The notes under the pieces are model-generated. The model worked only from the letters and a program-made list of their open reading frames with translations. It was not told the DNA's origin and did not search any database. A stretch of 64,000 nt of DNA from Trichosporon coremiiforme (lineage: Eukaryota; Basidiomycota; Tremellomycetes; Trichosporonales; Trichosporonaceae), in the NCBI GenBank assembly GCA_039545355.1, contig BCJJ01000036.1, positions 1-64,000 of the forward strand, given 5' to 3'. This document shows, in pieces, positions 2,580 through 42,862 of this stretch; position 1 is the first letter of the stretch, and each line of letters opens with the position of its first letter. Both the position numbers and the translations under genes were made by a program.

Positions 2580-3447
2580 GCTGCGTGTCACACTCTTTTG
2601 ATCCTGTCGCAACAACCCACAATCACCCTTCCATATCACCTCTCCACGTGTTTGTGCATCGCGCCACTAAGGCTCTGCTGCGTAAATGTTAATCAGTAGC
2701 TTAAGAACATGCAGTCTGATCTGTCCTGATGCCACTGTAGACGACGAGGGCCTGTGGAAGTGCCACCGCCATCGGGCATCTCACCAAGACCTTGGGCACC
2801 ATGGAAACCACATGCAAGGTGACGGGTTCCCTTGGACCCACATACTGTGCTCTTGGGGTGCAGCGATTGCTGTTTGATACGCTCGCCCTCCACCGCACCA
2901 ACAGGTGGCTCGCAAGGAGCGTTTTGTTTGCGATAATGAACCGTGATCCACCGTCTTTGTCGTGTGCCCGCACGCGAGGGCTGTCCTGCGCCACAGGGTG
3001 CCCCGGCGTTCGACTGCGTGACTAAAATCGGAGCCATTTGGGGCCGATGCAGCCCGTTGGGCCCGCTGGACCACCAACAGGGCCCACTGCCGCCGGATGT
3101 GGGGCTTTTGGGGCTCGCTGATCCCTCGGAAACAGCACAAATCCGCACAATGCCGCGCGGCCTCGGAAGCCGACGCTGGCTGCGCATCCTGGCTAGTACC
3201 TGCGGTGGCGTCGGCAAGTGACAGGGTGTTTCGTCGGGGACTGACCAGTTGGTTGCCGAGACCACTGATTATTATCAGTCTCAGCGGCGTCCACGAATCA
3301 TTGCTAAACGGCGACGTGTCCCACAACCCTGTCGGCGACATCCAGTGTGTGTCTGCTGCTCTCACGTTACAATACAAACGTGTTCTGCATGATTTGACGG
3401 ACTTCCTGCGTACAGACATTTTACAACTTCTATCATCGCAATTTGGC
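2580..3447. other. Intergenic region between convergent genes
   Basis: This lies between the 3' ends of the transporter and the ClpX gene. Long open frames exist on the minus strand (2693-3265 and 2781-3419), but they have random-looking composition, no recognisable domain and no splice logic. I see no gene here; 3' UTRs of both neighbours must lie in it. Confidence 0.6.
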
Positions 3448-5711
3448 TCAGCCGACTGCTCTCAACTTCTCATCATCGCCTAGGTCGATGTCCGGGGCGC
3501 GGCGCCGGATACCATCTTCTCGTTCGAGCACTTCTGTGAGAGCATGCCGCTGACCACGGGAAAAGTACATGGCAGGCTCTCGACCCTGAGCGGTTGCCGC
3601 CGTAATCAAACAGTGCTGAACCCCCTGCTTGTCAATTTCGCACGCGCAGCATCTACTCACGGAACCCGGCACCTCGAACATGGCGTCGACGAGAATCTCC
3701 TCAAGAACTCCACGGAGCCCACGGGCGCCGCCTCCTCGATCAAGACCCTCCTGAGCAATAGCATGAAGCGCTCGTCGGGTGAAAACAAGCTCAGACCCGT
3801 ACCGCCGGAACAGGGCTTGGTACTGCTTGATGAGAGCGTTACGCGGCTCGGTGAGAATGCGCACGAGGTCTTCCACCTCCAAAGCATGGAGGGACGACAC
3901 GACTGGGAGACGGCCAAGGAATTCAGGGATCAGCCCGTAGTCCTTCAAGTCATTCGAAGTGGCCTTGAGGGGTCCCGAAGGGAGATTAGCATTGATAGGA
4001 GCTCCAAAGCCAATAGACTGACTGTCAGCCCAACCCCGAGTCGAAAGGCTCACCCCTTTGCCCAGACGCTTAGAGATAATGTTCTCCAACCCAACAAAAG
4101 CGCCTGAGAGAACGAAAAGAATGTTGCTGGTGTCGACAACGAAAGTCTCGCCCTTGGTAACTGCTAGTCAGCGAGTGTCCCCACAGGGAACACACCACCT
4201 GGACCACCGGTGTAACCCGGGAGTCCTTCACGGACACCTTTCTTGGGGCCGGGTGAGGCCCCGAAACTGCGGTTCATGGGATTGTTGGGGTCCCAAGGAG
4301 GAGGGTCGTTGGCGTAAGGGTTGGACTCTGTCTTGGAACTGCCGGTGGTCAAGGTCGACGACGGAGACGAGGCGGTGGGCGCGTTGGAGCTGATGGGAGC
4401 GTTCTTAGCTGAGATAGTCACGCTGGTCCCTTCCAGAATGCGGAGCAAAGCCTGTTGCACACCCTCACCACCGACATCACGACCTCCGCCCCAAGTGCCG
4501 AACTCGTTGCCGCCCCGTCGGGCTAGCTTATCGACCTCATCGATGTGAATGATGCCCACTCTGGTTGTCAGCAGAATGAATAGTTGGATAGCTCACTCTG
4601 CACGTCCCACATCAAACTCCGCAGCCTGGAGAAGACGCAAAATGCAGCTCTCGACATCCTCGCCGACATCTGCTTCGTCAGTAACAGCATAAGCACACGT
4701 ACTCACAGCCTGCCTGGGTGTACGTCGTTGCATCGCACGACACGAAAGGAACATCCAAAGCCCTCGCCAGAGTTTTCGCCATGAGCGTCTTGCCGGTACC
4801 GGTGGGCCCGCTAACCATCAGCACTGACCTTCATGCCCAACGTACATCATCAGGACGTTGCTCTTTTCCACAACAACGTGAGGGTCTTCCTGAGTGGCGG
4901 CACCCTGAATGCTGCTCTTGACGGCTGCCGCATACTTGGCTTGCGCTTCCTCTTCCAGTCGTGCCTCTTCAGCGGCTCGAGCTTCATCTTTTCGAGACTT
5001 CTCCAGCCTTGCTTCCTCCTCTGAAAGTTCATTAGCGGACCGCTGATCCTCCTCTGTACTCTTTCGTCGGCGACCACGGACGGGCTTCTCCGGATCGCCC
5101 TGGTTGCTATCCTGGTTCGACACCTTGCCTAACAGTGTTGGCGGTCGAAGGGATGAAAAGTATCCATCACCTCGAGCTTCCTTATCAGCCAAGGTCCTGA
5201 TGCCACTACACGTACCCCACCGTTCTTCCCGTGACAGTACATGGTTGTGCGTCAGGGTTGGGTCGGAGCCCCCCTCGGCGCCAACAATGCGCGTGGCATC
5301 GCGCTGTGGCTGATTGGGATCATATGACGACTCAAACCCAGGTCGATCCCAATTGATGTAGTCCTCGTGGGGTAGAGGTGGAGCCGGAACGGCTTCCGCA
5401 GCGGGAACCGACGCCGGGGCTGGTGGGGGCGCTAAGAGTGGCTCAATGCGGCGGTAGTGGTTGAACACCCTTGCTGTGAGCTCAATGAGAGCTAGTCGAA
5501 ACTCACGCAACTGAAAGTGTCTTCTTCGCTCCCTCCTGGCCGATGATGTACTGCGACAGATGGTTGTACAACTGAGGTGTCAACAGTGACGAGGACGTAG
5601 GTGGGGGTGGCAACTCACGTCTTTGGGGGTCCTGACGGAGGACAGTCCGGAAGACCACCGCAGCGTCAGCTGTGGGAATCGCTTGGGATGAAAGCGCGTT
5701 CGAGCGAGCAT
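3448..5711 (-). CDS. MCX1: Mitochondrial ClpX-type AAA+ unfoldase (Mcx1 family), spliced
   Basis: This is an ATP-dependent unfoldase of the mitochondrial matrix, acting alone or with ClpP. I place the start at the ATG at 5711, not at the longer TTG-initiated frame. From there the first exon encodes a typical presequence rich in Arg, Ser and Leu, ending RTPKD. It splices with a 47-nt GTGAGT-CAG intron in phase 0 into [20 protein letters not shown], the classic ClpX N-terminal block; the next join restores VFNHYRRI. Then come a long Pro/Ala-rich and Glu/Lys-rich insertion, Walker A GPTGTGKT (about 4790), Walker [14 protein letters not shown] with the ClpX-specific [15 protein letters not shown], sensor 1 EFLGRLPV and sensor 2 GARGLR. 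The bacterial zinc-binding domain is absent. Near the end, an intron at 3660-3625 (36 nt, in frame) probably splits MFEVPGS from the C-tail. The gene is divergent from the histone deacetylase gene. Confidence 0.9.
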
Positions 5712-6154
5712 ACTGTATGGTGTCAAGACTGTCACCTATGCTCGAAGAATGATATAGACGCGGCAAGTCCAGTTAGACGATCAGACGTGAGTCGACTCGG
5801 CCGGCGCACTCCGACACCTCGAAAGTGGAGGTGGGGGATGGCAATGGGGAGCCGTGGGAGAGCTAAGGGTCCAAGTCACGTGACTATGGCAGCTTGTCTT
5901 CGTCGCGACTCTGAACCGGTTGCTCACCTAGTGCCACCCCTTCCATCGTCTTCATTCTCCTGCTCACCGCATCCACTCGGCTTTGTCACCTGAACTCAAC
6001 GCGCTACGGCTGTGCATCAACGCAATCACTGTGTATCCACCGTGCTCCACGCCGGAACTTGCTGCATCCGAAGCGTATACGACCTCGCCTCGATTGAGCC
6101 TTCAATCATCATTACCCTTCGACTGGAGAACTCATCGTCAAGCTCAAAGTCAAG
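5712..6154. promoter_or_regulatory. Shared divergent promoter of ClpX and histone deacetylase genes
   Basis: This 443-bp gap separates two divergent start codons, so it must hold both promoters and 5' leaders. The side toward the deacetylase is rich in CT runs. No obvious TATA box or palindrome stands out. Confidence 0.6.
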
Positions 6155-8153
6155 ATGAGCAATCTCGCTGATCCTAACAAAATGGTTCCTTTTGAGCCGA
6201 CGGATTTGAACGATCCGAACCGCTCAAATCGTCGAGTGGCCTAGTACGTTACATCGATTTATGTACCGCTAACATCAGCTTCTACGACCGTTAGTCAATC
6301 TACCCCTCTTTGTGCTGACAAGCAGACGATGTAGGAAACTATCACTTCTTCCTGGGACATCCTATGAAGCCGCACCGTATCCGAATGACTCACAATCTTA
6401 TCAGCAACTACGGTCTGTGCGACGAGAATGAGTACGATGCCCCGGAGGGAGCTGGCGAGGGAGCGCGTGCTCTCAACGACTGGGCGGCCGACAAGGATCC
6501 GGAAATCCAGGAGGCTGCCAAGTGGGAGAAGCGCATCATGAACGGACCTCGAGGAAAAGCGATGCAGGTGTTTGTGAGTAACGTGTACTTGTCGATGGCA
6601 ACTGACGAGGAGCGCCCCCGCCGTGCCACTAAAACTGAGATGACGCGCTTCCACACCGACGAGTACATCGACTTGCTGGAGGCTGTCACACCTGAGACTG
6701 CCGACGCGATGACAGGAGGAGGTATCAGATGTGAGTTGTGATGCCCAAGGGTGTTCCACTGACCTCAGGTCTTACGGGTGAGGATTGCCCTGCTTTCGAG
6801 GGAGTGTTCGAATTTTGCACAATCTCCGCCGGTGGTTCTCTCGGCGCTGCTGAAAAGCTCAACTCTGGGCATGCAGACGTCGCTGTCAACTGGGCTGGTG
6901 GCCTGCACCACGCCAAAAAGTCCGAGGCGTCTGGATTCTGTTACGTGAACGACATGTAGGTGTTTGTCACCCATCCTATGCTGACCACTAGTGTCCTCGG
7001 CATCCTGGAGTTGCTTCGAATTCACCCACGTGTTCTCTACATCGACGTAGATGTCCACCACGGAGATGGAGTGGAAGAAGCCTTTTACACCACCGACCGT
7101 GTCATGACGTGCTCGTTCCATCGTTTCGGTGAATTCTTCCCTGGAACCGGAGATGTTCGTGACCGGGGTATCAAGCGAGGAAAGGGTTACGCTGTCAACG
7201 TCCCTCTGCGTGACGGTATCACCGATCAGACCTACCAGTCTGTCTTCAAGCCTGTCATCAAGCAGATCATCGAGACTTTCCGACCAGGCGCCATCGTTCT
7301 GCAGCTGGGAGCGGACTCTCTGTCCGGTGATAAGCTTGGTGGTTTCAACCTGACGCTGGAGGGACATGGCGAGTGTGCCCGGTATGTTCGCAGCTTCAAC
7401 ATCCCCGTCATGATGGTGGGTGGAGGAGGCTATACAATCAAGAACGTCTCTAAGGCGTGGACAAAGGAGACAGGCATCATGTGCGGAGTCGAGCTACCGG
7501 AGGATCTACCTTACAACCGCTACCTCGAGTACTTTGGCCCCCGTTACAAGCTCGAGGTCATGCCCACCAACGTCGACGACCACAACCCGCCCGAGTACCT
7601 CGAAGCGCTGAAGCGTACGATTGCCGAGAACTTGCGCGAGCTGCCGCACGCGCCGAGTGTGCAAATGCGCGAGGTCCCGAGCAAGTCCATTTCGCGCGCC
7701 ATCGGTCTTTCCAAAGACGATGACGAGGATGACCCGGACAACGAGATCGATCAACGCATCAAGAAAATCTTCCGCCAAGGCGGAGATGTCGACTCAGACT
7801 CGGATTCTGATGACGACACTGCCGCGTATGCACGGGCGAACCGCGCCCGCCGTCAAGGAGGGCTGTCATTGCGTCCCAACCCAAGACCCCGCGTTAACGG
7901 CTTCCCCTCATCCAAGCGTCAAGCTTCGTGCTCGCCCGATGAGGGTGACGAGCAGGAGGGCCGCAAGAAGCGCAGTTTCTTCTACTCGAAGGCGGGTGAC
8001 GGAGTTTGGGACCCGACGTCATTGCTCAACCCCAATGCCAAGCCTGCGGACGGCTTGGTGAACGGCGTCAAGCCGAAACTCTTCGGTGGTATTCCGGAGA
8101 CTTGGAACGTCGGTCGCACGAGCCGTGCCGGTAGCCCTGCTAGCGTAGTGTAG
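6155..8153 (+). CDS. RPD3: Class I (Rpd3-type) histone deacetylase, spliced
   Basis: This is a zinc-dependent lysine deacetylase, the catalytic subunit of Rpd3/Sin3-type co-repressor complexes in the nucleus. The ATG at 6155 starts a short N-tail. Splicing gives [20 protein letters not shown] and then [19 protein letters not shown]. Active-site blocks are complete: [55 protein letters not shown] and [11 protein letters not shown]. About 45 residues (acidic, about 6421-6560) are inserted after NYGL relative to yeast Rpd3. An in-frame 39-nt intron at 6574-6612 probably must be removed to restore [14 protein letters not shown]. The other introns are 35-38 nt. The last exon (from about 6992) ends in an acidic, basic and Pro-rich tail of some 190 residues. 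The deacetylase call is firm; which paralogue it is cannot be told. Confidence 0.95.
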
Positions 8154-8427
8154 TTATAGTCATAGAGTCAGTGTACGATTTCCGCAGACGTGTTTTCTTA
8201 TGGAATATGAACCATCATATATGTAGACTGGAGCAGAGCGACTATTCTTATCTATCCGTTCGTACTGGCAGGTACAGCGGCATCAGATTGGGTACCGTGC
8301 CTGACGCCCGATTGTGTTTTGCCACTGCGAAACACTCCAGTTGGCACCATCACGATCGCCTCGCCTTGCCTCCTGCGATCCTGCACCATCCCCGCCGCAG
8401 CGCCGACGCACATACACACGGTCTAGG

Positions 8428-10582
8428 ATGTCCAAAACAATCTGCAGAGACTGGCAATCCACCGGGTGCGTGCAACGGGACCAAATACTCGGCTGACACG
8501 CAGTAACTGTCGATTTGGCAACAACTGTCGCTTCGCCCATCCACCTGGTAAGCATTGAAATCATGCGGAGACTGAGACCAGGCAACCAAGGCGGCCGATT
8601 CGGCTCGATCAGCTCCTCCAACGCCACTCCATTGGGAACACGAGCCCCGTCACAGACGGCTACAAATTATCAGTTCAAGTGAGTCTGCCGAAGAGTAAAG
8701 CTGACCGGTCAGTGAAGACACGGTGAAGCTCGAGCTCGGCGCCGAGCGACCGCTCTGGGTCATATCTTGCTTCGGTGCATCCAAGTATGAGCCGAACGTT
8801 CTCCAAGGAGACATGTCGCCGGAGGAGCTGCGCTGGAAGGCTGTCCAGGCGCTGAAGACAGGCGGCAATGCCGTAGACCAGTACGTTGCGGAGGAGAACA
8901 AGCTCGTGGGTGACGCCAAGTCAAAGCTTGACGAGGCGCTGTCCAACATCCCCCAAGTTGTGCGGACGGCTCAACGTATCCACGATCTACGCTTTAAGAA
9001 CGGTGCTGTCCCGGGTTCAGATCGCCCGGCCGACTTCAACGAGGAAGCGGCGCTGGCTGCGGCCAAGTCGGGCGGCCCTGCCCCGTCGGCAGGCGGATCC
9101 GCGTTTGGCCAATCCTCGTTTGGGGGTAGCAGCAACGCTGGAGGAAGCGCGTTCGGCAAGTCCTCCTTCGGCTCGTCGACGGGAGGAAGCGCATTCGGCC
9201 AATCGGCGTTCGGGCAAAAGGCTCCCGCACCTGGCGGCAGTGCGTTCGGACAGAGCGGATTCGGCGCCAAGCCAGCTACCAGCGGCGGCGCGTTCGGACA
9301 GAGTGCATTCGGCTCAGGATCTGGTGGCGGAGCGTTCGGCTCTTCCTCGACCACGGGCAGCGCCTTCGGCTCCAATGCGGCGAGCACGAGCACGACGGGT
9401 GGTGCTTTCGGGCAGTCCTCATTCGGCCAGAAGTCCGCGGGTTCTGCGTTCGGTCAGAGTGCGTTCGGCAGCACGGCCGCTTCGACCCTGCCGTCGGGAT
9501 CTACCACCGGCTCTGCATTCGGGCAAAGCGCGTTTGGTGCCAAACCAGCTGGTGGCTCTGCGTTCGGTCAGTCTAGCTTCGGCCAGAGCAGCACGACCAC
9601 CAGCACCACCGCCCCGCCCCCCGGTTCGGCGTTTGGACAGTCCGCCTTCGGTGCCAAGCCCAGCGCTTTCGGATCGACCACCAGCACGACGACCCCTGCC
9701 CAGGGCTCTGCATTCGGCCAGTCCGCCTTCGGCCAGGCGTCCACCCCGGCCGCACCGACGGCGTCTGCTTTCGGCGCCGGATCGGGCACGACCCCCTCGA
9801 CTTCCGCTGCAACTGGCGGCAGTGCGTTCGGCAAGACTGGCTTCGGCGCGTTCTCTTCCGGCGGTAGCGGCGCTTTTGGACAGCAGTCTGCTCCTGCTAC
9901 GGGCTCCACGTTCGGCCAGACTTCGGCCCCTGCTACCGGGAGTGCCTTCGGCAACACCTCGAACACCAGTACGCCAGCGACTACGACTGCCTTCGGCCAG
10001 TCCGCGACACCGGCAAAGGGCAGTGCGTTCGGCCAGACTTCGACTCCTGCAACTGGCAGCGCGTTCGGCCAGACCTCAACACCGGCGACGGGCAGTGCCT
10101 TTGGCCAGAGTGCGTTCGGCAAGCCCGCTGCCCCGGCCACGGGCAGTGCGTTCGGACAAACCTCGACGCCAGCCGCGGGCAGCGCGTTCGGCCAGACGTC
10201 CACGCCCGCTACTGGGAGCGCGTTCGGCCAGACCTCGACTCCCGCCACGGAAAGCGCTTTCGGCAACACGAGCGCATTCGGCAAGCCTGCGGCCTCGGCG
10301 TTCAGCGCCTTCTCTGCCGCGTCCAGCACGCCAGCCGCGCCCGCACCCTCCGCCTTTAGTAAAGGTGGCGGGTTCGGGCAGCCCTCGACAAATGCCTTTG
10401 GCAAGGCGACGTTTGGCGCCGACGTCGAGATCCCCGACGGGTGGAGCTATGAGGATCCCTGGAGCTGTTTCCTCCCCAAGCCGGAGGAGCTCGAGGAGGA
10501 GGTGCGCAAGGCGTTCGAGGCGGTGCAGTTCCAGCCGGACAAGATCCCCCTCCTTCCCCCGCCTGTCGCGCTTCGCTCCTAG
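8428..10582 (+). CDS. NUP42: FG nucleoporin with N-terminal CCCH zinc finger (Nup42/NUPL2-like)
   Basis: This is a cytoplasmic-side nuclear pore protein expected to act in mRNA export with Gle1. The ATG at 8428 begins MSKTICRDWQSTG. Splicing of a 37-nt intron (GTGCGTGC...ACGCAG) completes a perfect C-x8-C-x5-C-x3-H finger (CRDWQSTGNC, CRFGNNC, CRFAH). Two more short introns follow, then a folded block (LELGAERPLWVISCFGASKY, about 8725-9000). The middle (about 9100-10410) is a low-complexity domain with more than 40 FG dipeptides, mainly SAFGQ and paired SAFGQSAFG units. The end is conserved: EIPDGWSYEDPWSCFLP, then a terminal IPLLPPP motif resembling the Gle1-binding tail of vertebrate NUPL2. 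The family call is strong; exact orthology is inferred. Confidence 0.88.
9103..10410 (+). repeat. SAFG/FG-repeat coding domain of the nucleoporin
   Basis: This is a degenerate tandem array of codons for SAFGQ, SAFGQSAFGxK and TSTPATGSAFGQ units. At least 40 Phe-Gly dipeptides are separated by Ser/Thr/Ala/Pro linkers. The last third (about 9990-10270) is the most regular, with near-identical units of about 39 bases, which suggests recent duplication by slippage or unequal exchange. The long open frames on other frames across this block are products of the repeat composition. Confidence 0.9.
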
Positions 10583-10692
10583 TGCCCTTTTCAGTTCACG
10601 TGTATCAGTACTCTCATGCCATGTAACCCTTCAGCTATTGCAGAGGATGGACGTTCATACATGTTCTTCATTACGAGCCCGTGGGGGGCAGT

Positions 10693-13130
10693 CTAAGCGC
10701 GCCCGGTCGAGCCGAAGCCGCCAGCTCCGCGCTGGGTGGAGTCGAGCTCGTCGACCTGGCGGATGGGCGCCATGGCGATCCGCTCAAGGATGAGCTGGGC
10801 GATACGGTCGCCCTGCGCGACTGTTTCTGTCAGTTATCTTCCGGTCATTCTAACTCACTCTTAAAGTCGGCGTCGTTGTGGTTGAAGAGGACGACCTTGA
10901 CCTCGCCGCGGTAGTCGCAGTCGACGACGCCAGCGCCGACGTCGATGCCGTGCTTGGCCGCGAGACCCGAGCGCGGAGCGATGCGTCCGTACGTCTCGTC
11001 CGGGATCGCGATCGAGATGCCAGCCGAGACTATGCCCTTGCCGCGGGCAGGCAGCGTCGCGTCCTCGGCGGCGTACAGGTCGTAGCCGGCCGAGAGGGGC
11101 GAGCCGCGCGTGGGCACCTTAGCATTCGGCGTGAGGAGCTTGATGAGCAGCTCGTTCTGCGTCGGCTTGGGCGCAGCCGCGTCCTTCGGGGTCTCGGAGC
11201 CGTTCACGGGCGTCGAGGGCTTGGAGGCAGAGGCAGACTTGAGCGACGCAGCGACACCGGAAGCAAGACCAGTCGGGGCGGGGATCTTGGGCGATGACGG
11301 CTCAGAGTCGCTCTCCGGCATCTCCTTCTCGAGGCTGCGAGCGGACGGCTGCGGCTCCTCCTTCTTCGGCTCGGGCTTGGGCTCTTCCGGCTTCTTCACC
11401 TCCTCCTTCTTCGGCTCGGACTTCGGCTCCTCCTTCTTGGCCGCAGCGGCGGGGGCGGGAGACGGAGCGCTGCTAGTCTTGGTAGGCGTGGCAGTGATGG
11501 GGGTCTTGTTCGCCGACGTAGCCTTGGTCTCGAGGTCGACGAGGTTGGGGCGCGCAGTCTTGCCGCCGAACCAGTCGGCAGCGGAGAGGGCAGGCTCAAT
11601 CGAGTTGGCGGGAGGGTAGATGCTGAGAGTCAGTTCTGGCTGAACGTCGTCACTGGACGTACTCGGACTGGAAGCCCTCGGCCTTTCGGGGGACAACGAA
11701 GGAAAGGGGGTCAATGCCACCGCCCGAAAGCTTGAAGGCGCGGGCAATTTCGTTGTGCGAGACGTCGAGGCCGCGGCGGGGGATGAATCCGATTCCACGC
11801 TGCGGGTCGGAAGACTTGTACTCGTTCAGGAAGTGGAACTGGTCGCCCTCGAGCTCGTAGTAGCGAATGTTGCCGTCACTGACGTCAGCTTTTGCAGCAA
11901 CCACCACAGCTTACCCCTTGCCTGCAAGGAAGAGGACGTCGTTGCCCTCAGCAAAGAAAGGAACGATGATACCGGCGCTCGAGTCAAGGCTTTGCGTGTC
12001 GAGGTTGGTCAGGCCAGCAGTGTCCCAGAGGGAGAGCTGACGGTCGGACATCTTGGAGAACTGCAGTGTTAGCTATGAAGAAATGAGAAAGCTCACTCCA
12101 GTCGTGGCGATACGGTCGCGATCACCAAGCCAGACGACGCGAGAGCCCTTGATGCCTCCGTGGCCGTCAGTGATGCGAACAGCCTCGGTGCCAGCACGAG
12201 GGTCGAAGAGACGGAGCTTGCGGTCACGGCAGGTGGTGGCCAGGAGGGTGCCGATGGGGTTCCAGCACATGCTCTGAATGCTGTCCTTATGCCCGGTGAG
12301 GACAATGTTGGGCGAGTCGGGGCTCTCAATGTCCCAGAGGCGGAGCTGGTGGTCACCCGAGGCGGACGCCAGAACGTTCGCCGCAGCGGGGTGGAACTGG
12401 ACCTGGCCGACCTTGCGGCCACCGGCGTTCAGCAGACCGACGGGAGAAAGGTCCTCGGGCTCCCAGTCGTCCTCACCCCATCCGTTGAACATTCCATCGT
12501 CAATCTTCCAAACGAAGACTGCCTGTCAGCTTCAAGACGGTCATTCAAGCTCACTCTTGCCATCCTCTCCTCCAGAGACAACGAGGTTGTCATCGAAAGG
12601 AGACCATGCGGTGTCAAGACTGTCTCATCAGCGAGTTTGTGACATCTTGTGACATACACAGGGGCGGTGTGACCGCGAGCGAGGGGCAGTAAGTCCGGGA
12701 GCTTGGTGGGGAATCCCTCGGGCTGGGGCAGCTCGAAGGGGGAGAAGGAAGGGAGGACAGCGAACGCCTGGCGTGTTAGCAACGCTAGATCTCCATCAAA
12801 TCAACTCACACCACCTCCCGAGACCTGCCAATTGACAGCAATGTATTTCTGCGACGATCAGTACCAACACCTCCGTTGCTTCGTAGGACCTACCCCGCCG
12901 GCGGTCACGAGGTCAGTGTCCCACGCGCTGCCGCTGATCTTGGCGTTCTCGTAGTTGACCTTTGAGCGGGTCGCGTACGTATGCCTGTACTTGCTCTGAG
13001 ACTGTTAGCTGTGATTCTATCGGGAACGGCCCAATGCTGCACATGACCTGGACCTCGATATCGCCCAGCTGAATCTTGCTCCGGGCTTCCCCGAGGTCAA
13101 AACACTCACTGGTCGCACGAATCTTGACAT
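10693..13130 (-). CDS. CRN1: Coronin-dUTPase fusion protein, spliced
   Basis: The ATG at 13130 opens MSRFVRP. Splicing gives [20 protein letters not shown], the coronin signature, then WD repeats ([71 protein letters not shown]) to about residue 295. The coronin C-terminal extension follows ([61 protein letters not shown]). Without any stop the frame continues through a linker of about 118 residues rich in Lys, Glu, Pro and Ser into a complete trimeric-type dUTPase (about residues 525-670): [35 protein letters not shown] after a short intron, and [10 protein letters not shown]. Coronin binds actin and Arp2/3; dUTPase hydrolyses dUTP to dUMP. The normal coronin C-terminal coiled coil is not seen. 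Both parts are certain; that they are made as one protein is strongly indicated but not proven. Confidence 0.9.
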
Positions 13131-13501
13131 TGTCAACCGCTGGTTGTCTCGAGACGTAGCTGATGAGGGAACGAAAGACCAAAGGAGTGAAGTTTAACAG
13201 ATGATGATGAGTTGAAGCTGGCTTGGCAGTCGGATGGTCGCAATCACAGCACCGCGCTGTCACATTGCGTCCCCCCGCAATTCAGCCACGTGGATGTGCA
13301 TCACTGCCGGGTCTGCATTGACATTGCGGTTCTTCGCCGTGCACATCGTCCAGCAACTGCAGACGCGTTCATGCATCAATCGTACAACGAGATGCTGCTA
13401 TGGGACATTTTACAGGCTAGATGTATAACGTATTTTGATACGACTTGGGAACTAGAAATTATAAAAGGAGAGGTAAGCTTGCAGTTCCCCGATCCTATGT
13501 T
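13131..13501. other. Gap between tandem minus-strand genes
   Basis: These 371 bp hold the coronin-dUTPase promoter and the 3' end of the next gene upstream. It is less GC-rich than the flanks, with an AT-rich patch near 13430-13465. No gene is seen. Confidence 0.5.
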
Positions 13502-14794
13502 CTAAGTGATAGTGATGATGTTGCCCTTCGCGTCCCGGAGCACAACGAGGTCACAGGGGATCGTCTCGCCAGTGTCCATGTACGTGAGCGCGGTGGGGTC
13601 AAGGGGGTCGACCCTGCTTGTTAGCGCTGAAAGGACGTCGAACTCACTTGATGTTCATCTTCTCAATCCAAGAGCGACCAAGCACGACATCGAAGTGCTG
13701 CTCCTCTGACAGCATGACGGGGTGAAGAGCCGTCTTCTCTCCAACAGTAATGGGGACATTTCCGAGCATAACCAGTCCGCCGTAGCCGCCGAATCCCGGT
13801 CGCTCCTTACGGGAGATAAGGCCGTGGCGAACGGCGAAGGAACGCGAGACGTAAACGCCGCGGTAGCCTTGCTTGAGGAGCATACGCACGCCTTGCACAT
13901 CGCCAACGGCACCCACAACTGTTCGTACACCATTGTTCGCGTGGAACTGTATATTAGCAGAGCGCCAGGTCGGAGGTACTCACATCCTCCCACTGTCGGC
14001 GCTTCACGTCGCCCAGAGGCTCAGCATCATCATCACCCCACTTGCTCCTGCGGGAAGTGGTGCTCCGCATCGATCGGACGCTGCGAGCGCGGTTCTTGTC
14101 GCGGTTAGGAATGCACAGCGAGGTGGACGCCGTCAGGGGGTCGGTGCCGGATCGGATCACAATGGTGCTGTGGGTCGACGGGGCCACAGAGGCGCGAGAA
14201 CCAGCTCGCGATCCCGCCCTCGACGATGGCCGTCCACCGGCCTGGCTACCGTTGGCGTTGAGCCTCGAGTTGCTCTTCTTCTTCTGAGACTTGTTCGCGT
14301 ACTGCTGGCTGGCCGAGCCGTAGGCCGGGGGAGGCGGAGCGGGATAGCCGTTGTTGGACTTGTTCGCGTTCGGCTGAACAATGTGGAGAGTGACGCTGGG
14401 CATAGCCTTGCCCTGGCGGTCCTCCGCTTTGAAGCGCTCAGTGACGATGGACAGGTCGTCGTCTGATGGTCAGCTGGTTCTCACGAGCAGAGGTGATAGT
14501 CTTGCCGCACGCCAGATCACACTCACCATCCTCTAAAGCCCAACGGTCGCCGTCAAACTCGTACACGACGCCAGCGCCACCACGGTTGCTTCGGACAGCA
14601 TTCTCCTCGTCGTCGTCGAGCTTGGCCTTTGCAAGAATGCGGGAAAGAAGAGCGTCGCAGTCCTCGGTCTCTGCGATGGAGGTCAGCTCGGCTTTCTGGG
14701 GAAGCGGGTTCTGAAGCCCACAAGAGGCGTCCGACGTACCCTTTGCCTTGAGTGCGAAGGTTTTGTTGGGAGCGTGGACGTTGTATATAAACAT
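13502..14794 (-). CDS. Conserved fungal protein with retropepsin-like C-terminal domain
   Basis: The role is unknown. The ATG at 14794 starts MFIYNVHAPNKTFALKAK. Two introns are removed (about 64 and 63 nt); the joins give KAKETEDCDALL and WALEDDDDLSIVTERF. The N-terminal part (VVYEFDGDRWALEDDDD then VTLHIVQ) looks like a beta-grasp/PB1-like domain. A disordered Ser/Arg/Asn-rich middle follows (GSRAGSRAS, RSVRSMRSTTSRRSKW). The last about 130 residues, after another short intron, look like a retroviral-type aspartic protease fold: MLLKQGYRGVYVSRSFAVRH, GLVMLGNVPITVG and FDVVLGRSWIE, then DPLDPTALTYMDTGE. The DTG/DSG that should precede the VSRSFA helix reads KQGY, so proteolysis is unlikely. 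The structural reading is inference from motif order. Confidence 0.75.
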
Positions 14795-15324
14795 GGCTGT
14801 GTTGAAATGAGCAAGTGTGTAAGATGAGTAGCGGAAGAAAAGAAAGAAGTTGAAGGAACGAGATGAGGTGAGATGGGATGCGACCGGCAGGTAAATAGAG
14901 AGTGGGTGTCTCGAGTATGATGTCGCGAATTGAGTTGGGTGGAACGGGACCTGTGTGCAGGGCTGGGGCCGGAGGGCGTGTCCTAATTCAGCCATGTAGT
15001 GCGGTGGGCGTGGTGGGCCGCGAGCCATGAGATCAGGGACGCATGCCCTATGACGTAGCGCCTCCTCCTCTCGGACGGCTGAGAGACTGAATTAGCTTAG
15101 GCACCTAGGTGCTAGTGTTCGGTTGGCCCAGCGCACCCAGCGCACCCAGCGCGCCCAGCGCACAGGAGTGCTAGAGCGAGCGCTCGGCCTGCGCAGAGCA
15201 TAAAGGCACCACCGTTCTACGGCTCACCGGCATTGGCCCTCTCACAACAGCAATGACCCGATGAGGTCACCCTGAGTTTGATGTACTGCGATATTGCGTC
15301 CACGCGTCCACCACCGCAATGTCA
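14795..15324. other. Upstream region of the retropepsin-like gene
   Basis: This holds the promoter and leader of the gene starting at 14794. It contains a short tandem repeat near 15128-15165. I see no coding sequence. Confidence 0.5.
15128..15165. repeat. Short tandem repeat, 9-nt unit CAGCGCACC
   Basis: Four to five nearly perfect copies of a 9-base unit (CAGCGCACC, one copy with G for A) lie in tandem in an intergenic region. It is a minisatellite-like slippage product, with no evident regulatory role. Confidence 0.8.
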
Positions 15325-15749
15325 TCATAACTGATTCCTCCAAGCACAAAAAGGAGTCGTCCCTCCACCGTGCCAGCTACCTTTCCTCTTTCGATTTCGA
15401 GGTCCCTGGGCTCGTCGTCTGCATCTTTCATTGGACAGGTCGTCGTCTGAATCTTCCGAGCCCTGGTCACCATCTGCCAACCTTGCTTCCCGGTCGGCAC
15501 ACCTGAATGTCGATCAGCGATTGCACCTGACGACGTTCAACGCACACCCCTCGTACTCACCGACAGTTCTAAGTGCGGCGAGCGGCGCGTTGAGCCCCTC
15601 TGGTCACGTGCTTCGTGGGCAATGTCCCAATCTGCTGCATGCTCGAGAGAATAGACGTGCAAGATATCGTCTCGGCGCGCAGTACGAGAGCTTGAAGAGC
15701 AGGGTGCTGTTCCATGGCAAAGCTGCTCAAGTGGGATAAGTGTAACCAT
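15325..15749 (-). CDS. Possible small spliced gene, unknown
   Basis: This is a doubtful model. The frame from the ATG at 15749 reads into HEARDQRGSTRRSPHLELS. A GTGAGT donor follows there; an acceptor GTCGTCAG 34 nt later would join VQSLIDIQ. A second intron (GTGTGCCG...GGTGACCAG, about 40 nt, with a good branch point) would then join GSEDSDDDLSNERCRRRAQG and a basic tail ending at TGA 15325. Both junctions use the same very short intron style as the genes around and keep the frame open. No homologue is recognised. It is divergent from the epimerase-like gene. It could equally be chance. Confidence 0.3.
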
Positions 15750-16001
15750 ATGTTATCCGCATGAGCGCACGAGTCCCATCAATCCTGCAACGTGCGAATG
15801 TGATGCATGTACGGAGTTGTGGACTTGTGCACCTCGATGTAACTGCAGTCTTAAGATCGAGAGAGCCCAGTCGCAGAAGAGCCCGGCATCTAAACCCGCT
15901 CGGTCTCTTGATGTTACGAAGCCGAAGAAGTCCCATCCGCTTCGTCTGCGTCCGCTCTCTATCCGACCTCGACACACTCTCCTTTCAGCCAACAAGAAAC
16001 G

Positions 16002-17157
16002 ATGAAGGTCCTCGTCCTCGGCGCGAGCGGTAAGCTTCGTGGTCCTTCCAGTTCCAGCTAACCCCAGGATTCGTCGGCTCTGCCGTCGCCTCCGCCTTCG
16101 TCCGCGCAGGACACATAGTGTATGGTCAGACACGCAGCGACGACACTGGCTCGCGGATGGCCGCGCAGGAGATCTTCCCCGTTGTCTGTGACCCCTTCAG
16201 CGACACCGAGACCTGGGCCAAGATAGCAAAGGAAGTCGACGTCGGTGAGCTTCACGAGTCGGTGTGAGCTGACATCAGTCGTGGACGCCCTTGCCTCGAT
16301 CGGACTGAAGGAGGCGCAGCTCGTGCTCTCCGCCTTCCTCAAAGCCGTCAAGCACAGGCCAAGCTGTCCAGTTCTTCCGACTTATGTGTATTGCTCCGGA
16401 CACTATGTCATGGCCGCCGGCCTGCGATGGACAGACGAGAGACAGCCCGCCCTCGCGCCCTGCAACAAGGGCAGCGCTTGGCGCCGAGATATCGAGGACG
16501 CCATCCTCACCTCGTCGCACGTCAACGGCGTCGTCATACGGCCAGTGTGCCTGTATGGAAAGGGCGGGAGCTACTTTGGCGCGTACCATTTCCGGCCCGC
16601 TCTGAACGCACTCAAGAAGGGCAAGAAACGGTTCGAGAGCATAGTGGGGGACAGCGGGAAGATCGCTACTGTGCACTGCGACGATGCGGCTGAGCTCTTC
16701 GTCGCGGTCGCTGAACGCGTTAGTACAGCTAGGGGATTGACTAGGTAGCTGACAACCACAGGGCCCCATCTGCAGAGGACATGTGTTCGTCGCGTCTAAC
16801 CCGTCCACGGACAATGTGAGGGATATCCTCGACGGTGTCGTGAGAGTAACGGGGTTGGAGGGCTGGGACGCTCGGAAACCGAGGGACGGTGAGTCTCTTT
16901 CTCGCCTTAGAAGCCTACAAATCGCGGCATCTGCAGCTGACAACAGATGGGGAGAGAGCGTGGGTTACGCCAGTGCTACAGAAGCCGAGTCTCGGACATG
17001 CGGTCACGGGATGGGCGCCGAGACGGATTGGCGTGTCGGACGGTATTGAGATGTATTGGGTAAGGCTGAGGAGGCTTCGTTAGGCTGACGACAGAACTCG
17101 TTCGTGCACAACCAGCCGAAGAAATATCAGGTCGAGCCCGAGTGGGTTGTGCTCTGA
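16002..17157 (+). CDS. NAD(P)-binding epimerase/dehydratase-family protein (extended SDR)
   Basis: This is a cytosolic Rossmann-fold enzyme of the NAD-dependent epimerase/dehydratase type; the substrate is unknown. The ATG at 16002 gives MKVLVLGAS, and after the first short intron GFVGSAV, completing the GxxGxxG dinucleotide-binding loop. Then come RAGHIVYGQTRSDDTGSRM (the NADP-selecting region), a strand-4 block VVVDALAS, YVYCSGHYVMA at the usual active-site Ser position, VVIRPVCLYGKGGSYFG, and KIATVHCDDAAELFVAVAER, typical of atypical extended SDRs of the NmrA/epimerase side. Five or so introns divide about 320 residues. The C-terminal block ends WVVL at TGA 17157. The 3' end faces Yta7 only 141 bp away. 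Confidence 0.82.
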
Positions 17158-17298
17158 GTTGTACTGAGTCGAATGCAAACTGCTGCCATTTGTACAGACG
17201 GTTTCTCTATTGCTCTGCGCATAGCATTTCTCGCTCGCGCACAGCTTACATGCTTACTCTCATACGGATACATAAAGTCTACATCTAGCCTAACAACT

Positions 17299-20200
17299 TT
17301 ACTCGTACTCCTCCTCGCGGTCCAGCTTCACCTCCTCGAGGTACTGGCGTACAAACTTTTCCAACCCCTCGACGAGCGGGGAGCGGTCCCAACTCTGGCG
17401 AGCGCGCCACACGCGGTCTAGCAGCGCGGCACGCAGCTGCTCCAACTCTTCAACCGTCAGCAACCCCGTGTCGTCACGCAGCGCCGCGCGCAGAGCAGAC
17501 AGGTCAGGGACCTCCAGAGGTGGGTAGACTGGCGGAGGAGACGGAGACTTGGCCGGCGTAGGCTCCTTTGGAGCAGGCGTCGGCTCCCTGGGGGCAGGCG
17601 TGGATTCCTTCGCTGGGTTACCATTCGCGGGCGCTGGCTCCGCGCTGATGGCCGTGGTGGGGTCCCCACCGCCGATCGGCTGTACAGTCGCCGCGATCTC
17701 GTTCGCTGTCTCGAGCGCCACCTCGGTCGCGGGGTCAACGTCCATGGCGTCGTCGCGGGAACGCTTCGCGGGGGTGTTCTCGTCCTCACCCTCCTCGCGA
17801 GGTCGCTTCAGGCTTGTAGCTTCGCCCTCATTCTGTGCGTTGGCGACGGTCTCCCCGTTGGCTGCAGCAGCCTCAGCCCCGCCGTCCGCCTTCTCCTGCT
17901 CCTTGGCCCTCTCTGCCTCTCGCGCCGCCCTCGCCTTTGCGCGCTCAGCCTTGCGTTGGCGCATACGCTCGCCGTAATGCGCAAACTCGGGGATCCACTT
18001 CGGGTCAAAGCTCTGAACATGCATACGCGCATGCGCAGCCATCTCAGACATCTTGAGCTGGCGATCCGCATCCATCGTGTGGTTCGCGTTGTCCTCGATC
18101 AGCGCAATATCTGCAAGCACCTCGTCCGGCGTAAAGTACTTGTGCTTGACAAGCTTGCGCTGAATGATGTCGATATCAATGTTGTGCGCCTCCCACGGTT
18201 TGGCGACCGTGGCGACCGCCTGCTCCTGCTGTTGATCGCCAGCCTCAGTAGGCGCAGCCGTTGACACTTCACCACAGGCGGATGTGATCATGACAGCAGG
18301 AACGGTGGGCACCCCGGTAGTCGCGGCTTCCACGACGACATTGCCGTCCGCTTGAGCTTCGACCACTGTTGCCTCGATGGACGCTGGCTCCATCGTCACC
18401 TCGCCATTGGCGGTCTCAACCGGCGCGACGACTTGGGCAGCCGCGGAAGGTGGAGTCTGAGGCGGGTTGGCGTTGAGCGCTGCCTGCTCCGCTTGCCAGG
18501 CGGCGTTGGCGAACGCCTCCTCCTTGACGATTGAGGCTGGTCGGCGGTACTTCCTCATGAACTCGGCGATCAGTGACGAGAAACTGACGAATAGCATGTT
18601 GCGGGCGGCGGCGTCGCGCTCCAGTTCGCGCTGAACCTCAGCTTCCGTCGGCTTACGGGGAGGCAGAGGCTCAGCCGGCGGAAGGATCTCGAGGACACGT
18701 TTCTTACGAGGAACCCCGTCCGGGAACTCGTTCGGGGGTCGCTGCACAGAGTCCAAAAGGTCCGAGAAAAACTTCTCCCTCTGGTCCGCGTTAGGTTTGC
18801 CAATCTCAATGCGGCTCTCGTCGCCGATACCGAACCACTTTCTGACATCGGAGGGGATAGACGAGAGAGGTCCGTCGACGATGGCGAGGAGCAATACCGG
18901 GTCAGACGGTGGGATGCTGTCGAGCAGTGCTCTCGTGGTCGATCGCGCGGCGTCCGAAATGGTATGCGCCCACTGCGCGAGCGAAGGGATGAAGATGACG
19001 CTCGGCTGGTGACGCTTGGCCTCGACGAAGAGCTGCACGACAGCCGCCTCGGGTGTACGCGTTGAGTCGCTCATGAGCGTCGCAATGTCGAATGACTGCA
19101 CATGGAAGCCCTCCAGATGGTGCAAAAGCGCCGGTCCGAGGTACGTCTGTCCCATGCCAGCTTCACCGTAGATCAGCAGGCGAGGGCGGTATGTTCGAAG
19201 TTTGTCAAGGGCTGATGTCAGTTGGAAATACGCGTTACCCAACGTACACTGCAGCATGAGTTCCTTTTCGAACGTGTCACCATCGTCATCCTCAAATTCA
19301 GCTTCCTCCAAAGCTGTTCGCTTCGTAACGGGCGGAAGGGCAAGATCGACTGCCCGCTTAATCCCCTCGAGACTGTCAGAGAGTAGCGGTACAAGCTGGG
19401 GCGGAAGTTGAGCAGCCGCTGAAGACGCTGAACGAGCACTGGATGCAACGATTTCTGTCGTCAGAGAGGTTGCGATGCGATCTACTCACTGTTCACTGCC
19501 AACATGAAATCCTTCGGCTGCACCCGTACTGAACCAGGCTGGACCTGCAGACGATCGGTCGACTTGTAGATCTGCGGGTACCTCCTCTGGATGGCGTTCA
19601 GCGCCGCCTCCGTACACAGCGCTCGCAGGTCGGAGCCACCGTAACCCTTAGTGAGAGTAGCGAGCTTATCCAGCATAGGCTCTGGCAGCTGCGGGTCCCA
19701 CTCGCGAGTGTTGATCTTGATGATCTGCTTGCGGGCGTCGATGTTCGGAAGCGGGAAGTAAAACTCTCTGTCGAAACGTCCCGGGCGTCGCAGAGCAGGG
19801 TCGACCGCATCGGGACGGTTGGTGGCACCGATGACAATGACCTGTCCTCGCCCATCCATACCATCCATCAAAGCGAGCAGAGTGGACACCAAGCTCGCGT
19901 GGATCTGGTCCTGTTTGCTGCTTCGCACCGGCGCCAGACCGTCGATCTCGTCGAAGAAGATGATGGAAGGCTGAGACGCTCTTGCTTCCTCGAAGAGCAT
20001 TCGAAGCTGGCGTTCTGCCTCACCTACCCACTTCGACAAAACGTCGGCACCCTTGCGCATGAAGAAAGAGATCTTCGTATTGCCATTGCTGCAGGATGCG
20101 GCCAGAGCCCTTGCGAGCAGAGTCTTACCCGTACCGGGTGGACCGTGGAATAGAACACCTCGAGGAGGGATGATGCCGAACTGTTGAAAGAGCTCGGGGT

Positions 20201-22187
20201 AGAGTAGAGGCAGAGCGACCATCTCTTTGAGCTGGTTGATGTGATTGTCGAGGCCACCCACACGATCAAAGGTGACGTTAACGTCAACACCGAGAGGGTC
20301 GGCGTCAGCCATGTTCGACTTTGGGTTCACGCGTCCAAAGTTTGGAACGTCGGATGGGCCTGCAGCTCGGCCAGGCATACCGGACGGACCACCGACAGTG
20401 CCGGCACCACCGGCGGCGGCTGCACCTCCACCTGCGCCCAAGGCGGGAAGATCCATGTCAGAGTCCGACGAGTCGGGGTCTCCCATGGCCTGTGCAAAGT
20501 CCTTACCCTTGAGTGACCAGGGTAAGGTCTTGCCACTGACTGCCGCGCCAAAATTGGCGGCGCCAGCGCCGGGGAAGCCACCTCCGCGTCGGGCGCCACC
20601 CGGCCTTGAGGCAGCGGCGATGGCGTTGTTCATGATTTCCGCCGCTTGAATCTCGGCGGAAATGTCCATCGGTGGCAGCTCGTAGTTTGGACGCGATCCG
20701 CGCTTGCGTAAAGTCCGTTTGGCTCCATAGGAGTCGTCCGAATCCATAGCTCGGGTCGACCGGGTCGCTCTGACAGATGACCGGGTAGCACGACGAGTCG
20801 GGCGGCGGCGAGGGGGTGAATCATCGAGGAAGTTGTCGTCATCCTGCTCTTCATAGTCGTCCACTACCTCGTCGGGGCTCTCGGGTTCTGAGGATTGGTC
20901 CGATTCTGTTGGAGCAAATGATTCGGCGTCGGCGGACGAGTGGCGTTGACGCGACGGCTGCCTATTCCTCTTAGGAGCAGGCGTGTCTTCAGGCGCCGTG
21001 TCGAGTACAGGTCCCTCAGTTCCATTGACCGGTTCATCGTCGTCAGGGTCTACGATGCGACGGCGCGCCTTCCGTGTGGCTACTTCCTGGATAACCGGGC
21101 TGGTATCCAGCATGTTGTTCTCAAAGTCATCGTCATCGGCATAGCGTTCAGGGACCTTGCTTGACCTAGATGAGCGGCGAGTAGGTTCAGCAACGGGCGG
21201 CGCCGGCGCAGAGGGTTCGTAATCAGCCTCGCCGTCGGCATCCTCGTCTTCGTCCTCTTCCACCACCGTGCGGCGAGTAGCTCGTCGACCAGTTCGCGTC
21301 GGTCGATTCACAACCGGTGGTTCAGGTTCGTCTTCGTCCTCGCCGTCGTCCTCTTCCTCGGGCTCCTCCTGGAAGTCCCCATCGTCCTCATCTTCATTGT
21401 AGTTGACCTGTTTAGCGGCTCTACCACGCCGAGGGCGGTCAGCAACAGGAGTCATGGCCTCTTCCTTGACTCCCTTCCGCGAGCGCGAGGGCATGTCGCC
21501 GCCGGGGTTGAGGCGAAGGATGATCTTCTTCGGGTTGGACAGAGTGGCTGTTGGAGGAGAGTCAGCCGCCAATTGAGGCTGCTCCGTCGGGACAGGTTCG
21601 AGAGGGGATACCGATGCCAGAGGCTGAGTGGGTACCTGCTGCTGTTGCTGTTGCTGCTGCGGCTGGTGCTGTTGAAATTGTGCGGGGTAGGCAGCCTGCG
21701 CTGGCCAAGACTGAGCCTGCTGATCGAAAGTTGGCGGCAGTCCTGGACCAGAAAATGAGTGAGGGGCAGACTCGTAGGCAGGGGTGATAGGGTTGCCGTA
21801 GCCGTCGACGCGAGCGGGCTGGTGAACTAGTTGTTGGTGATTAGTGGCTTGATCGTAGTACGGAGGTTGGTTGACTTGGCTCAGGTAAGGCACGTGAGCG
21901 GAGCCGGAGGGTAGTTGATGATGATCAACGACGCCGTTAGGGACCTGATATGACGCCGAGTGATGGAAGCCCTGCTGGTAGGGAAGGGGTTGGCCGGCGA
22001 GATGGGGAGGGAAGCCTTGGTTGGGATGGAAGTCGGGGTGGTGTTGAGGAGAGGGTCCAGGGTAGTAAGTGCCCGAGGATTGACTACCGATGCCGATACC
22101 GTGAGGAGGGTTCGGAGAGGGATGCGAGTGAGGGTGATGAGGGTGGTTGTAATCAGGCTCGGGCGGACCCCGTGGAGTGCCCGACAT
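17299..22187 (-). CDS. YTA7: Yta7/ATAD2-type chromatin AAA ATPase with divergent bromodomain
   Basis: This is a nuclear histone-chaperone ATPase (Abo1/ATAD2/Yta7 family). I chose the ATG at 22187 (MSGTPRGPPEPDY); the frame is open further upstream but carries no family sequence. The N-terminal about 550 residues are low-complexity: Pro/His-rich, a poly-Gln run near 21650, then acidic and Arg-rich blocks. The first AAA domain is intact: VGGLDNHINQLKEMVALPLL, GPPGTGKT (about residue 690), [34 protein letters not shown]. The second AAA domain has a degenerate Walker A (GEAGMGQTYL, Lys replaced by Gln), probably inactive as usual in this family. The bromodomain is broken up: MLFVSFSSLIAEFMRKY, then about 110 Ala/Thr/Val-rich residues, then IDIIQRKLVKHKYFTPDEVL. 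A 36-nt in-frame intron at 19247-19212 is likely. The tail ends DREEEYE. Confidence 0.93.
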
Positions 22188-23852
22188 GGAAGGGCGCCTT
22201 TGGGGGCGCGGGGGGGACAAGAAGAGCGGCAACGATGCGTGTGAGGGGGAAGGCTCGTTGTCGTCGTGAAAGGTGGTGCGCCCTGTTGGTCGTGAGAGGG
22301 TGATGCGCGTTTCAACTCGGACGTCGAGGTCGTTTCTGCAGTGGAAGCAGTCTACGTGCTGGTTACGGGTCGGGTCACCAACGGGCCAACGTGACGTGAC
22401 TGACAAACCAGCCAGCCAGCCAGCTTCGACAGCCGCCCACGCACTTTTGGTCCCGCTTCCTGCTGACAGCCACCACTGCGCCCGGTTTGATTCCGTTGAA
22501 GCTTCCTCCACCTCAGACCGAGCTGCGCTGCACAGAGAGACGTCCACTCGACCAGTGAGTGCATTATGCCCACGTCGAGCGCGACACGTCGACCGACATA
22601 CCTATAGATGAGCTTCTCTGTCAATCGTACACCTTGCGTAGATATCAGTGTCAACGTCAATACCAAGGCGGAATAGCGCATCGCGAGTTTTGAGCGGGAT
22701 GAGCGAGCGAGCATGGAGGTGATGACGAGCAGGTGGAGAGGATGACAAGCGTGCGAAGTGGGCAGTGAGAAGAGGAGTGAATGCAACATGGAACGAACAA
22801 CGGTGTGGACACTGGCAGCGAGGGTCGAGGGTTGAGGGAAGGCGGTATCGGGAGCTGGGCGGGGTAGGATTGACCAGCCAGAGTTTAGATGGTCGCGTGC
22901 CCATGACCGGGCCGCCCGACTTTCGGACTAGGGAACTCGAGCGAGCTGCGATGCAAGCAAGCATGACGCAAAGGCTTTGCACTCTCGACGGTCCAACGGG
23001 CACGACCGAGTACAGAAACTTTGCTCTCCGGACTTGGACCCGAGAACAGATAGACCTCGATCAGGACACGGAAATTGGGGGAGCATCACCACCGGACCAG
23101 CACTGCGATGTCTACCTGTTCGCGCTGCTGGGCCATGCTGGGCCCTGTGCCTGTGCAATTACCAAGCGTGATCGTAGTTCGATGGACAGGAGAGGAAGAA
23201 TGGTGGAGGTAGAATAGGGAGGCGAACCAGTGATTGACTTGCTGCGTTACGGCCTATTGCGCACCTCCTTGACCGTCCGCGTTTAACTACGCATAATTGA
23301 GTTCATATTGAAGCCGGATGCTGCCCTAGCAGGGGGGCAAACGAAGGCCAGCAGAGCGGTGAAGAGGAGCAGGGCTCAATGAGCTGGTCTTGTTCGGTCG
23401 TTGCCACTGGACTGTCAGAGCTGATGCCACTGCTGAGACGCCGACGACTGACGAGCTGACGGTGGTACAGTGGGCACCTCTGCATCTTCGAAATCGCGGC
23501 TCGTCCGCACCCGAGCCTTTCGAGCCTTTCGAGCCTATCGAGCTAACCCTTGGACCTTGATCTTGCAAAGCCCTGTCAGGTCCCTGCCCTTAGCTATGCG
23601 ACCCTCTCCCCTCCACTCATCATTCGCTTCCCTTCAGCTCAGCATGCCATGCCTCAGACCCTGTACCCCTCAATCTGCCTTACGCCGGATCGCCATCCCA
23701 CCACTCATCCACCTTCCTCCACCCGGGGCGCTCTCACCAGATTAGCGTGATTTCGCCAGACTCAGACTCACCTCCTCCATGTCTCTCCATTGCCACCTCT
23801 GACATCCCGAGTCACTCTCAACACAGTACATCTCCTTTTCCCTCAACACTCC
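22188..23852. promoter_or_regulatory. Divergent intergenic region between Yta7 and SPRY genes
   Basis: These 1.67 kb separate two divergent start codons. Several open frames of 60-150 codons occur on both strands (for example 22765-23217), but none has recognisable protein character. Short direct repeats of CGAGCCTTT lie near 23520. The first about 400 bp upstream of Yta7 remain open in its frame, so an upstream start cannot be fully excluded. Confidence 0.5.

Positions 23853-41721: not shown

Positions 41722-42862
<1,141 letters not shown>

What the first reader, a model, noticed from the sequence alone, without database searches (positions are those of the whole stretch)
10693..13130. Coronin and dUTPase fused in one reading frame
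A complete coronin (WD propeller and C-terminal extension, up to [11 protein letters not shown]) and a complete dUTPase with all five family motifs are joined by about 118 residues without a stop; the uninterrupted frame spans 11630-10870. Coronins normally end in a trimerising coiled coil, which is missing here. dUTPase is an obligate trimer with shared active sites, so the enzyme could replace the coiled coil as the trimerisation module, or actin binding could localise dUTP hydrolysis. The pairing of an actin/Arp2/3 regulator with nucleotide-pool cleaning is unexpected. The trimer idea is inference.
Basis: partly seen in the sequence, partly recalled or inferred. Interest (0 to 1): 0.88.

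Follow-up and report, generated by a model that had tools for sequence, protein, structure and literature searches.

The report
Coronin fused to dUTPase, already published
This fungal gene encodes one protein that joins an actin regulator (coronin) to an enzyme that clears a faulty DNA building block (dUTPase); the joining is real in the sequence, but it was described in 2011 for Cryptococcus and its relatives, together with the idea that the enzyme holds the protein together as a trimer.

Summary
The fusion is real in the sequence. A ten-exon gene on the minus strand (13130-10693) encodes a 670-residue, 71.6 kDa protein: a complete coronin domain (1-409), a proline-rich 120-residue linker (410-529) and a dUTPase with all five motifs (530-670). 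The joint lies inside one 764-base exon (11622-10859). The linker shows no coiled coil or trimerisation motif. Two stand-alone dUTPase genes (C29, C13) also exist, 92.5% identical to each other and 62.8% to the fused domain.

It is not new. Eckert, Hammesfahr and Kollmar (2011, PMC3203266) reported that Tremellomycetes coronins carry a C-terminal dUTPase in place of the coiled coil, with cDNA support in Filobasidiella, a second ordinary dUTPase, and the same trimer proposal. Genome size and homoeolog divergence suggest a hybrid Trichosporonaceae yeast (inference), so this is one more species of a known kind. The same genome's two tandem coronins carry a D-glycerate 3-kinase between their coronin domains, a fusion that paper reported for Filobasidiella. 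I found no experimental test of either pairing in the papers searched.

The parts
10693..13130 (-). Whole coronin-dUTPase gene, ATG to stop, 10 exons, 670 aa
   Evidence: Hand-built gene model; nine introns of 36-114 nt, each with GT donor, CTRAY branch point and CAG acceptor; frame closed
11517..13130 (-). Coronin domain, residues 1-409 (with introns)
   Evidence: Pfam DUF1899, WD40, WD40_4; phmmer to coronin-1A 2aq5, E 5.1e-89, residues 3-405
11157..11516 (-). Linker, residues 410-529, 23 Pro of 120, no Trp or Phe, no coiled coil found
   Evidence: Composition and motif scan
10693..11156 (-). dUTPase, residues 530-670 and stop (with one intron)
   Evidence: Pfam PF00692 at 540-668; motifs 1-5 at residues 552, 590, 605, 632, 659 (motif patterns recalled)
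10859..11622 (-). Exon 9: end of the coronin domain, linker and dUTPase motifs 1-3 in one uninterrupted exon
   Evidence: in frame throughout, no consensus intron found inside
11623..11662 (-).
   Evidence: GTACGT..CTGACTCTCAG, 40 nt; aligns to coronin-1A FQEDLYPP
10821..10858 (-). Intron 9, inside the dUTPase between motifs 3 and 4
   Evidence: GTGAGT..CTGACAGAAACAG, 38 nt
11319..11321 (-). Only in-frame ATG in the linker (Met475), a possible internal start for a free dUTPase
   Evidence: no evidence that it is used

Best explanation
It is the Tremellomycetes-type short coronin: one 71.6 kDa protein in which a dUTPase has taken the place of the C-terminal coiled coil. Most likely the dUTPase domains of three chains form the usual dUTPase trimer with three shared active sites. 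That trimer presents three coronin propellers on flexible proline-rich linkers to actin filaments, so the dUTPase does the oligomerising job of the lost coiled coil. It probably keeps hydrolysing dUTP as well, alongside the separate ordinary dUTPase. Shown in sequence: the joined reading frame, the complete domains and motifs, the missing coiled coil, and the other dUTPase genes. Inferred: expression as one protein in this species, trimer formation, catalysis, and any link to actin.
For: Continuous spliced frame with the joint inside one exon. Both domains complete by Pfam and PDB comparison. All five motifs, including the catalytic motif 3 (GVVDCDYRG; role of the motif recalled and in a passage of PMC4531489), are shared with the two stand-alone enzymes. 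Motif 5 is two residues from the C-terminus, so the fusion leaves that arm free. The linker has no coiled coil or R-[ILVM]-x-x-[ILV]-E motif. Eckert et al. [quoted passage not shown] Precedent: the Mason-Pfizer monkey virus nucleocapsid-dUTPase fusion is homotrimeric with low catalytic efficiency (title in the reference list and a passage of PMC4531489).
Against: No transcript or protein of this species was examined. The trimer was not modelled. The linker frame alone could be open by chance (187 of 2000 shuffles). Conservation of linker and motifs across species could not be tested because the protein database was off. The organism's class is inferred only.
Confidence: 0.75

Rival explanations
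1. The dUTPase domain is kept only as a trimerising scaffold and its catalysis is not needed, since ordinary dUTPase genes exist.
For: Two stand-alone dUTPase genes with all five motifs; a fused N-terminal domain goes with low catalytic efficiency in the monkey virus nucleocapsid-dUTPase (reference title).
Against: All five motifs including the C-terminal arm are intact in the fused domain; but many of these residues could also be kept for folding, and no selection test across species could be run.
Confidence: 0.12
2. The point of the fusion is to hold dUTP hydrolysis at actin structures, while the stand-alone enzyme serves elsewhere, perhaps the nucleus; trimerisation is a by-product.
For: Coronin domain complete, with Lys26 at the place of coronin-1B Arg30 (my reading of the alignment), a substitution that Eckert et al. 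call frequent. The stand-alone enzymes have their own lysine-containing N-terminal extension; whether it is a nuclear signal was not tested.
Against: dUTP diffuses freely (established knowledge), so local hydrolysis has no obvious use; I did not find localisation data.
Confidence: 0.08
3. Two products: a coronin ending in the linker and a free dUTPase begun at Met475 or from an internal promoter, with joined product minor or absent.
For: One in-frame ATG in the linker at 11321; the frame openness of the linker alone is not significant (187 of 2000 shuffles).
Against: No stop, no consensus intron found and no second in-frame ATG in the linker; [quoted passage not shown]
Confidence: 0.04
4. Assembly or sequencing error joins two neighbouring genes.
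For: Only one copy was found in this assembly, so there is no second copy to check against.
Against: Same architecture reported in other Tremellomycetes; the frame runs on across the joint with third-position GC high in all three parts, though rising (coronin 0.763, linker 0.842, dUTPase 0.894).
Confidence: 0.01

Closest known systems
Tremellomycetes (Filobasidiella/Cryptococcus) coronin with C-terminal dUTPase, Eckert et al. 2011, PMC3203266
   Same: Domain order, dUTPase in place of the coiled coil, all dUTPase motifs, a further stand-alone dUTPase, and the published trimer proposal
   Different: A further species, probably a hybrid Trichosporonaceae yeast (inferred); stand-alone dUTPase in two homoeologous copies; no published sequence could be compared
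Short coronins with coiled coil (yeast Crn1, metazoan class 1)
   Same: Complete coronin domain, phmmer to coronin-1A E 5.1e-89
   Different: No coiled coil or trimerisation motif, no Trp in the linker
Trimeric dUTPases (PF00692)
   Same: Full domain, five motifs, 62.8% identity to each of the genome's two stand-alone enzymes
   Different: Carries a 529-residue N-terminal coronin domain and linker
Betaretroviral nucleocapsid-dUTPase fusion
   Same: Works alike: a foreign N-terminal domain on a dUTPase that stays trimeric (reference title and passage)
   Different: Unrelated partner and origin; no sequence compared

Membership tests
Tremellomycetes coronin-dUTPase (Eckert 2011) | Coronin domain followed by C-terminal dUTPase in one frame | tested here: met
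Tremellomycetes coronin-dUTPase (Eckert 2011) | No coiled coil | tested here: met
   No proline-free run over 18 residues in the linker, no trimerisation motif after the propeller; no coiled-coil program was run
Tremellomycetes coronin-dUTPase (Eckert 2011) | A further ordinary dUTPase in the genome | tested here: met
   C29 and C13 genes
Tremellomycetes coronin-dUTPase (Eckert 2011) | Joined transcript | not testable with these tools
   Published for several Filobasidiella species
Tremellomycetes coronin-dUTPase (Eckert 2011) | Organism is a Tremellomycete | tested here: inconclusive
   42.04 Mb in 134 contigs, homoeologs 92-92.5% identical in protein, window 59.7% GC. T. coremiiforme JCM 2938 is listed at 42.35 Mb, 59.60% GC but 190 in the sequence-count column, with 7% parental divergence. 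Against a firm name: the Cutaneotrichosporon hybrid B3 has a similar divergence (92.76% similarity) at 38.70 Mb, and C. mucoides is 40.78 Mb. Circumstantial.
Coronin family | DUF1899, WD40 propeller and C-terminal extension | tested here: met
Coronin family | C-terminal coiled coil with R-[ILVM]-x-x-[ILV]-E (usual for short coronins) | tested here: not met
   Only match is in the propeller, residue 172; absence of the coiled coil is the published trait of this subgroup
Trimeric dUTPase | Five conserved motifs | tested here: met
   (patterns recalled)
Trimeric dUTPase | Homotrimer and dUTP hydrolysis | not testable with these tools
   Needs purified protein

The most novel reading that the evidence does not exclude
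In this genome every coronin that the family searches found carries a metabolic enzyme (dUTPase on the short one, glycerate 3-kinase in both tandem ones). The enzymes may act as ligand-sensitive oligomerising or regulatory modules, so that nucleotide or sugar-acid levels tune actin remodelling. Nothing here tests that.
Probability: 0.05. Interest if true: 0.75.

Novelty: already known. Interest (0 to 1): 0.3.

Why it matters
The fusion looks like a natural case of an enzyme trimer standing in for a structural coiled coil, and whether actin regulation and dUTP clearance are connected was still open in the paper that described it. The value here is confirmation in a further genome, probably of another order of the class (inferred), and the second coronin-enzyme fusion in the same genome. 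The discovery itself is from 2011.

Tried and rejected
Assembly artefact: rejected, because the same architecture is published for other species. Hidden intron or stop in the linker: none found in exon 9 with a donor, branch-point and acceptor pattern. By eye all nine introns fit that pattern, but it was not run on them as a control. An acidic Arp2/3-binding stretch in the linker: no Trp or Phe in it; the tandem coronins do end in DDDW.

A second copy of the fusion: none found. The dUTPase family search and the coronin exon search gave the fusion only on C36; other matches to the exon were at most 37% identical. DNA searches of window 4000-18000, 18000-37900 and 44000-63900 gave 8, 6 and 6 matches: four of 63-76 bases at 79-81%, the rest at 65-74%. 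The seven aligned stretches of two homoeologous pairs are 76.9-93.6% identical. These searches score only the best candidates and skip very common words. Window 1-3999 and 37901-43999 were not searched.

No coiled-coil program was run. Cross-species comparison could not be made: the protein database was switched off. A search for 'coronin' with 'glycerate kinase' gave one paper, not relevant by title and abstract start. The known paper writes 'glycerate 3-kinase', so that search says nothing about novelty. Two Cryptococcus papers were looked at for coronin passages only. PMC9952340 names a coronin by a Fusarium accession; PMC11651612 lists CNAG_05301 as coronin. Neither passage mentions a dUTPase.

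Full report
What is there. On the minus strand, 13130 to 10693, lies one gene of ten exons. The nine introns are short (36-114 nt), with GT donors, CTRAY branch points and CAG acceptors, and splicing gives a closed frame of 670 codons, 71.6 kDa. The model is hand-built; no transcript was available. Its open frame starting at 11630 begins inside an intron (11662-11623). Removing that intron restores the coronin sequence FQSDIYPP, which aligns with FQEDLYPP of coronin-1A.

Domains. Pfam finds DUF1899 (3-61), WD40 repeats, the WD40_4 extension (357-399) and dUTPase (540-668, E 1e-45). By phmmer residues 3-405 match coronin-1A (2aq5, E 5.1e-89), and residues 533-668 match solved dUTPases, best 4oop at E 1.6e-52. 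All five dUTPase motifs are present, at residues 552, 590, 605, 632 and 659 (motif patterns recalled). At the position of coronin-1B Arg30, the residue whose change to Asp abolished actin binding, there is Lys26 (my reading of the alignment). Eckert et al. say that arginine there is often substituted by lysine or proline.

Linker. Residues 410-529 hold 23 prolines of 120, 9 Leu/Ile/Val/Met, and no proline-free run longer than 18 residues. The trimerisation motif R-[ILVM]-x-x-[ILV]-E (definition; K or Q also allowed at the first place) occurs only once, in the propeller at residue 172. There is no Trp or Phe in the linker. A coiled coil is therefore not to be expected, though no coiled-coil program was run. 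The linker frame is uninterrupted within exon 9 (11622-10859) and no consensus intron was found there. On its own this is weak, because 187 of 2000 dinucleotide shuffles of the 360-nt linker also stay open. The joined cDNAs reported for relatives carry more weight.

Other dUTPases. A family search of the whole 42.04 Mb assembly gave 4 matches: two are the two exons of the fusion, and two are stand-alone genes on C29 and C13. Their two-exon models encode 203 and 201 residues. They are 92.5% identical (185 of 200) to each other, and each is 62.8% identical (86 of 137) to the fused domain. All five motifs are present in all three. On sequence evidence, then, the fusion is not this genome's only dUTPase.

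Organism. The assembly is unnamed. Two homoeologous pairs (C29/C13 dUTPase, C25/C1 kinase stretch) are 92.5% and 92% identical in protein. This and the size of 42.04 Mb fit the hybrid Trichosporonaceae. T. coremiiforme JCM 2938 is listed at 42,353,277 bases and 59.60% GC, with parental divergence of 7%; the window is 59.7% GC. The contig number differs (134 here, 190 listed). Cutaneotrichosporon hybrids are not excluded: strain B3 has subgenomes 92.76% similar at 38.70 Mb, and C. mucoides is 40.78 Mb. T. ovoides fits less well, with 17% divergence at 40.32 Mb. This is inference, not identification.

Copy number. The fusion was found once. The searched parts of the window gave no homoeolog-like match (the searches score only best candidates). 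This stretch thus appears to survive from one parent only, to be collapsed, or to be missing from the assembly.

What is known. Eckert, Hammesfahr and Kollmar 2011 (PMC3203266; I read the abstract, sections 7, 11 and 12, and passages of others) state the following. [quoted passage not shown] A further dUTPase is present. All motifs are present. [quoted passage not shown] The link to actin needs experiments. The observation and the trimer idea of the finding are therefore both in print. A search for papers holding 'coronin' and 'dUTPase' gave 3 papers, of which by title and abstract start only this one is on the subject. A search with 'coronin', 'Cryptococcus' and 'dUTP' gave 2, with the same answer, and a six-term search gave 11, again with only this one on the subject by title and abstract start. 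The library is open-access only, so later experimental work elsewhere cannot be excluded.

A second fusion. The two tandem coronin genes (C25, open frame 1376 aa from a GTG; C1, 1238 aa from an ATG; true starts not determined) each have two WD40_4 matches. Between them lies a segment whose C25 copy matches D-glycerate 3-kinase (6ckg, E 1.2e-62). Pfam and NCBIfam show only weak P-loop kinase or GTPase matches there. The C1 copy is 92% identical over the 285 residues, and two further matches at 42% identity lie on C24 and C1, in open frames of 242 and 378 aa. The same paper reported a D-glycerate 3-kinase between the coronin domains of Filobasidiella class-3 coronins, and not in other basidiomycetes. 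If the organism is a Trichosporonaceae yeast, this widens the range of that fusion. The family searches found only this short coronin and these two tandem coronins, so each coronin found here carries an enzyme.

Mechanism. Most likely the dUTPase trimer replaces the coiled coil and presents three coronin heads on flexible linkers. The near-terminal motif 5 is left free, which allows the usual shared active sites, so catalysis is probably kept. A fused nucleocapsid-dUTPase of a betaretrovirus is a homotrimer with low catalytic efficiency (reference title and passage in PMC4531489). Such a trimer thus tolerates an N-terminal partner, but the low efficiency also leaves room for the scaffold-only rival. 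Expression in this species, the trimer, catalysis and any actin-nucleotide link remain untested.

The organism inference was widened from Trichosporon to Trichosporonaceae, and several counts were made exact.

Noticed in passing
G000:C25:529962-534092 (in L027) and G000:C1:1886421-1890137 (in L028): Both homoeologous tandem coronins carry a D-glycerate 3-kinase-like segment between the two coronin domains and end in an acidic DDDW tail; published for Filobasidiella.
   Followed up: partly
window 4000-37900 and 44000-63900: No homoeolog-like match was found for these stretches in a genome where other genes occur in pairs (for example rows, C29/C13, C25/C1), so the coronin-dUTPase region appears single copy (loss, collapse or missing contigs).
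   Followed up: partly
8723-10582 (+): Convergent neighbour with many SAFGQ/FG repeats, like an FG nucleoporin by eye; its stop is 110 bases from the stop of the fusion gene. An 87-residue piece of it was found only once in the genome.
   Followed up: partly
13644-13916 (-): Open frame just upstream of the fusion gene that looks by eye like a retrotransposon aspartyl protease piece; not tested.
   Followed up: no
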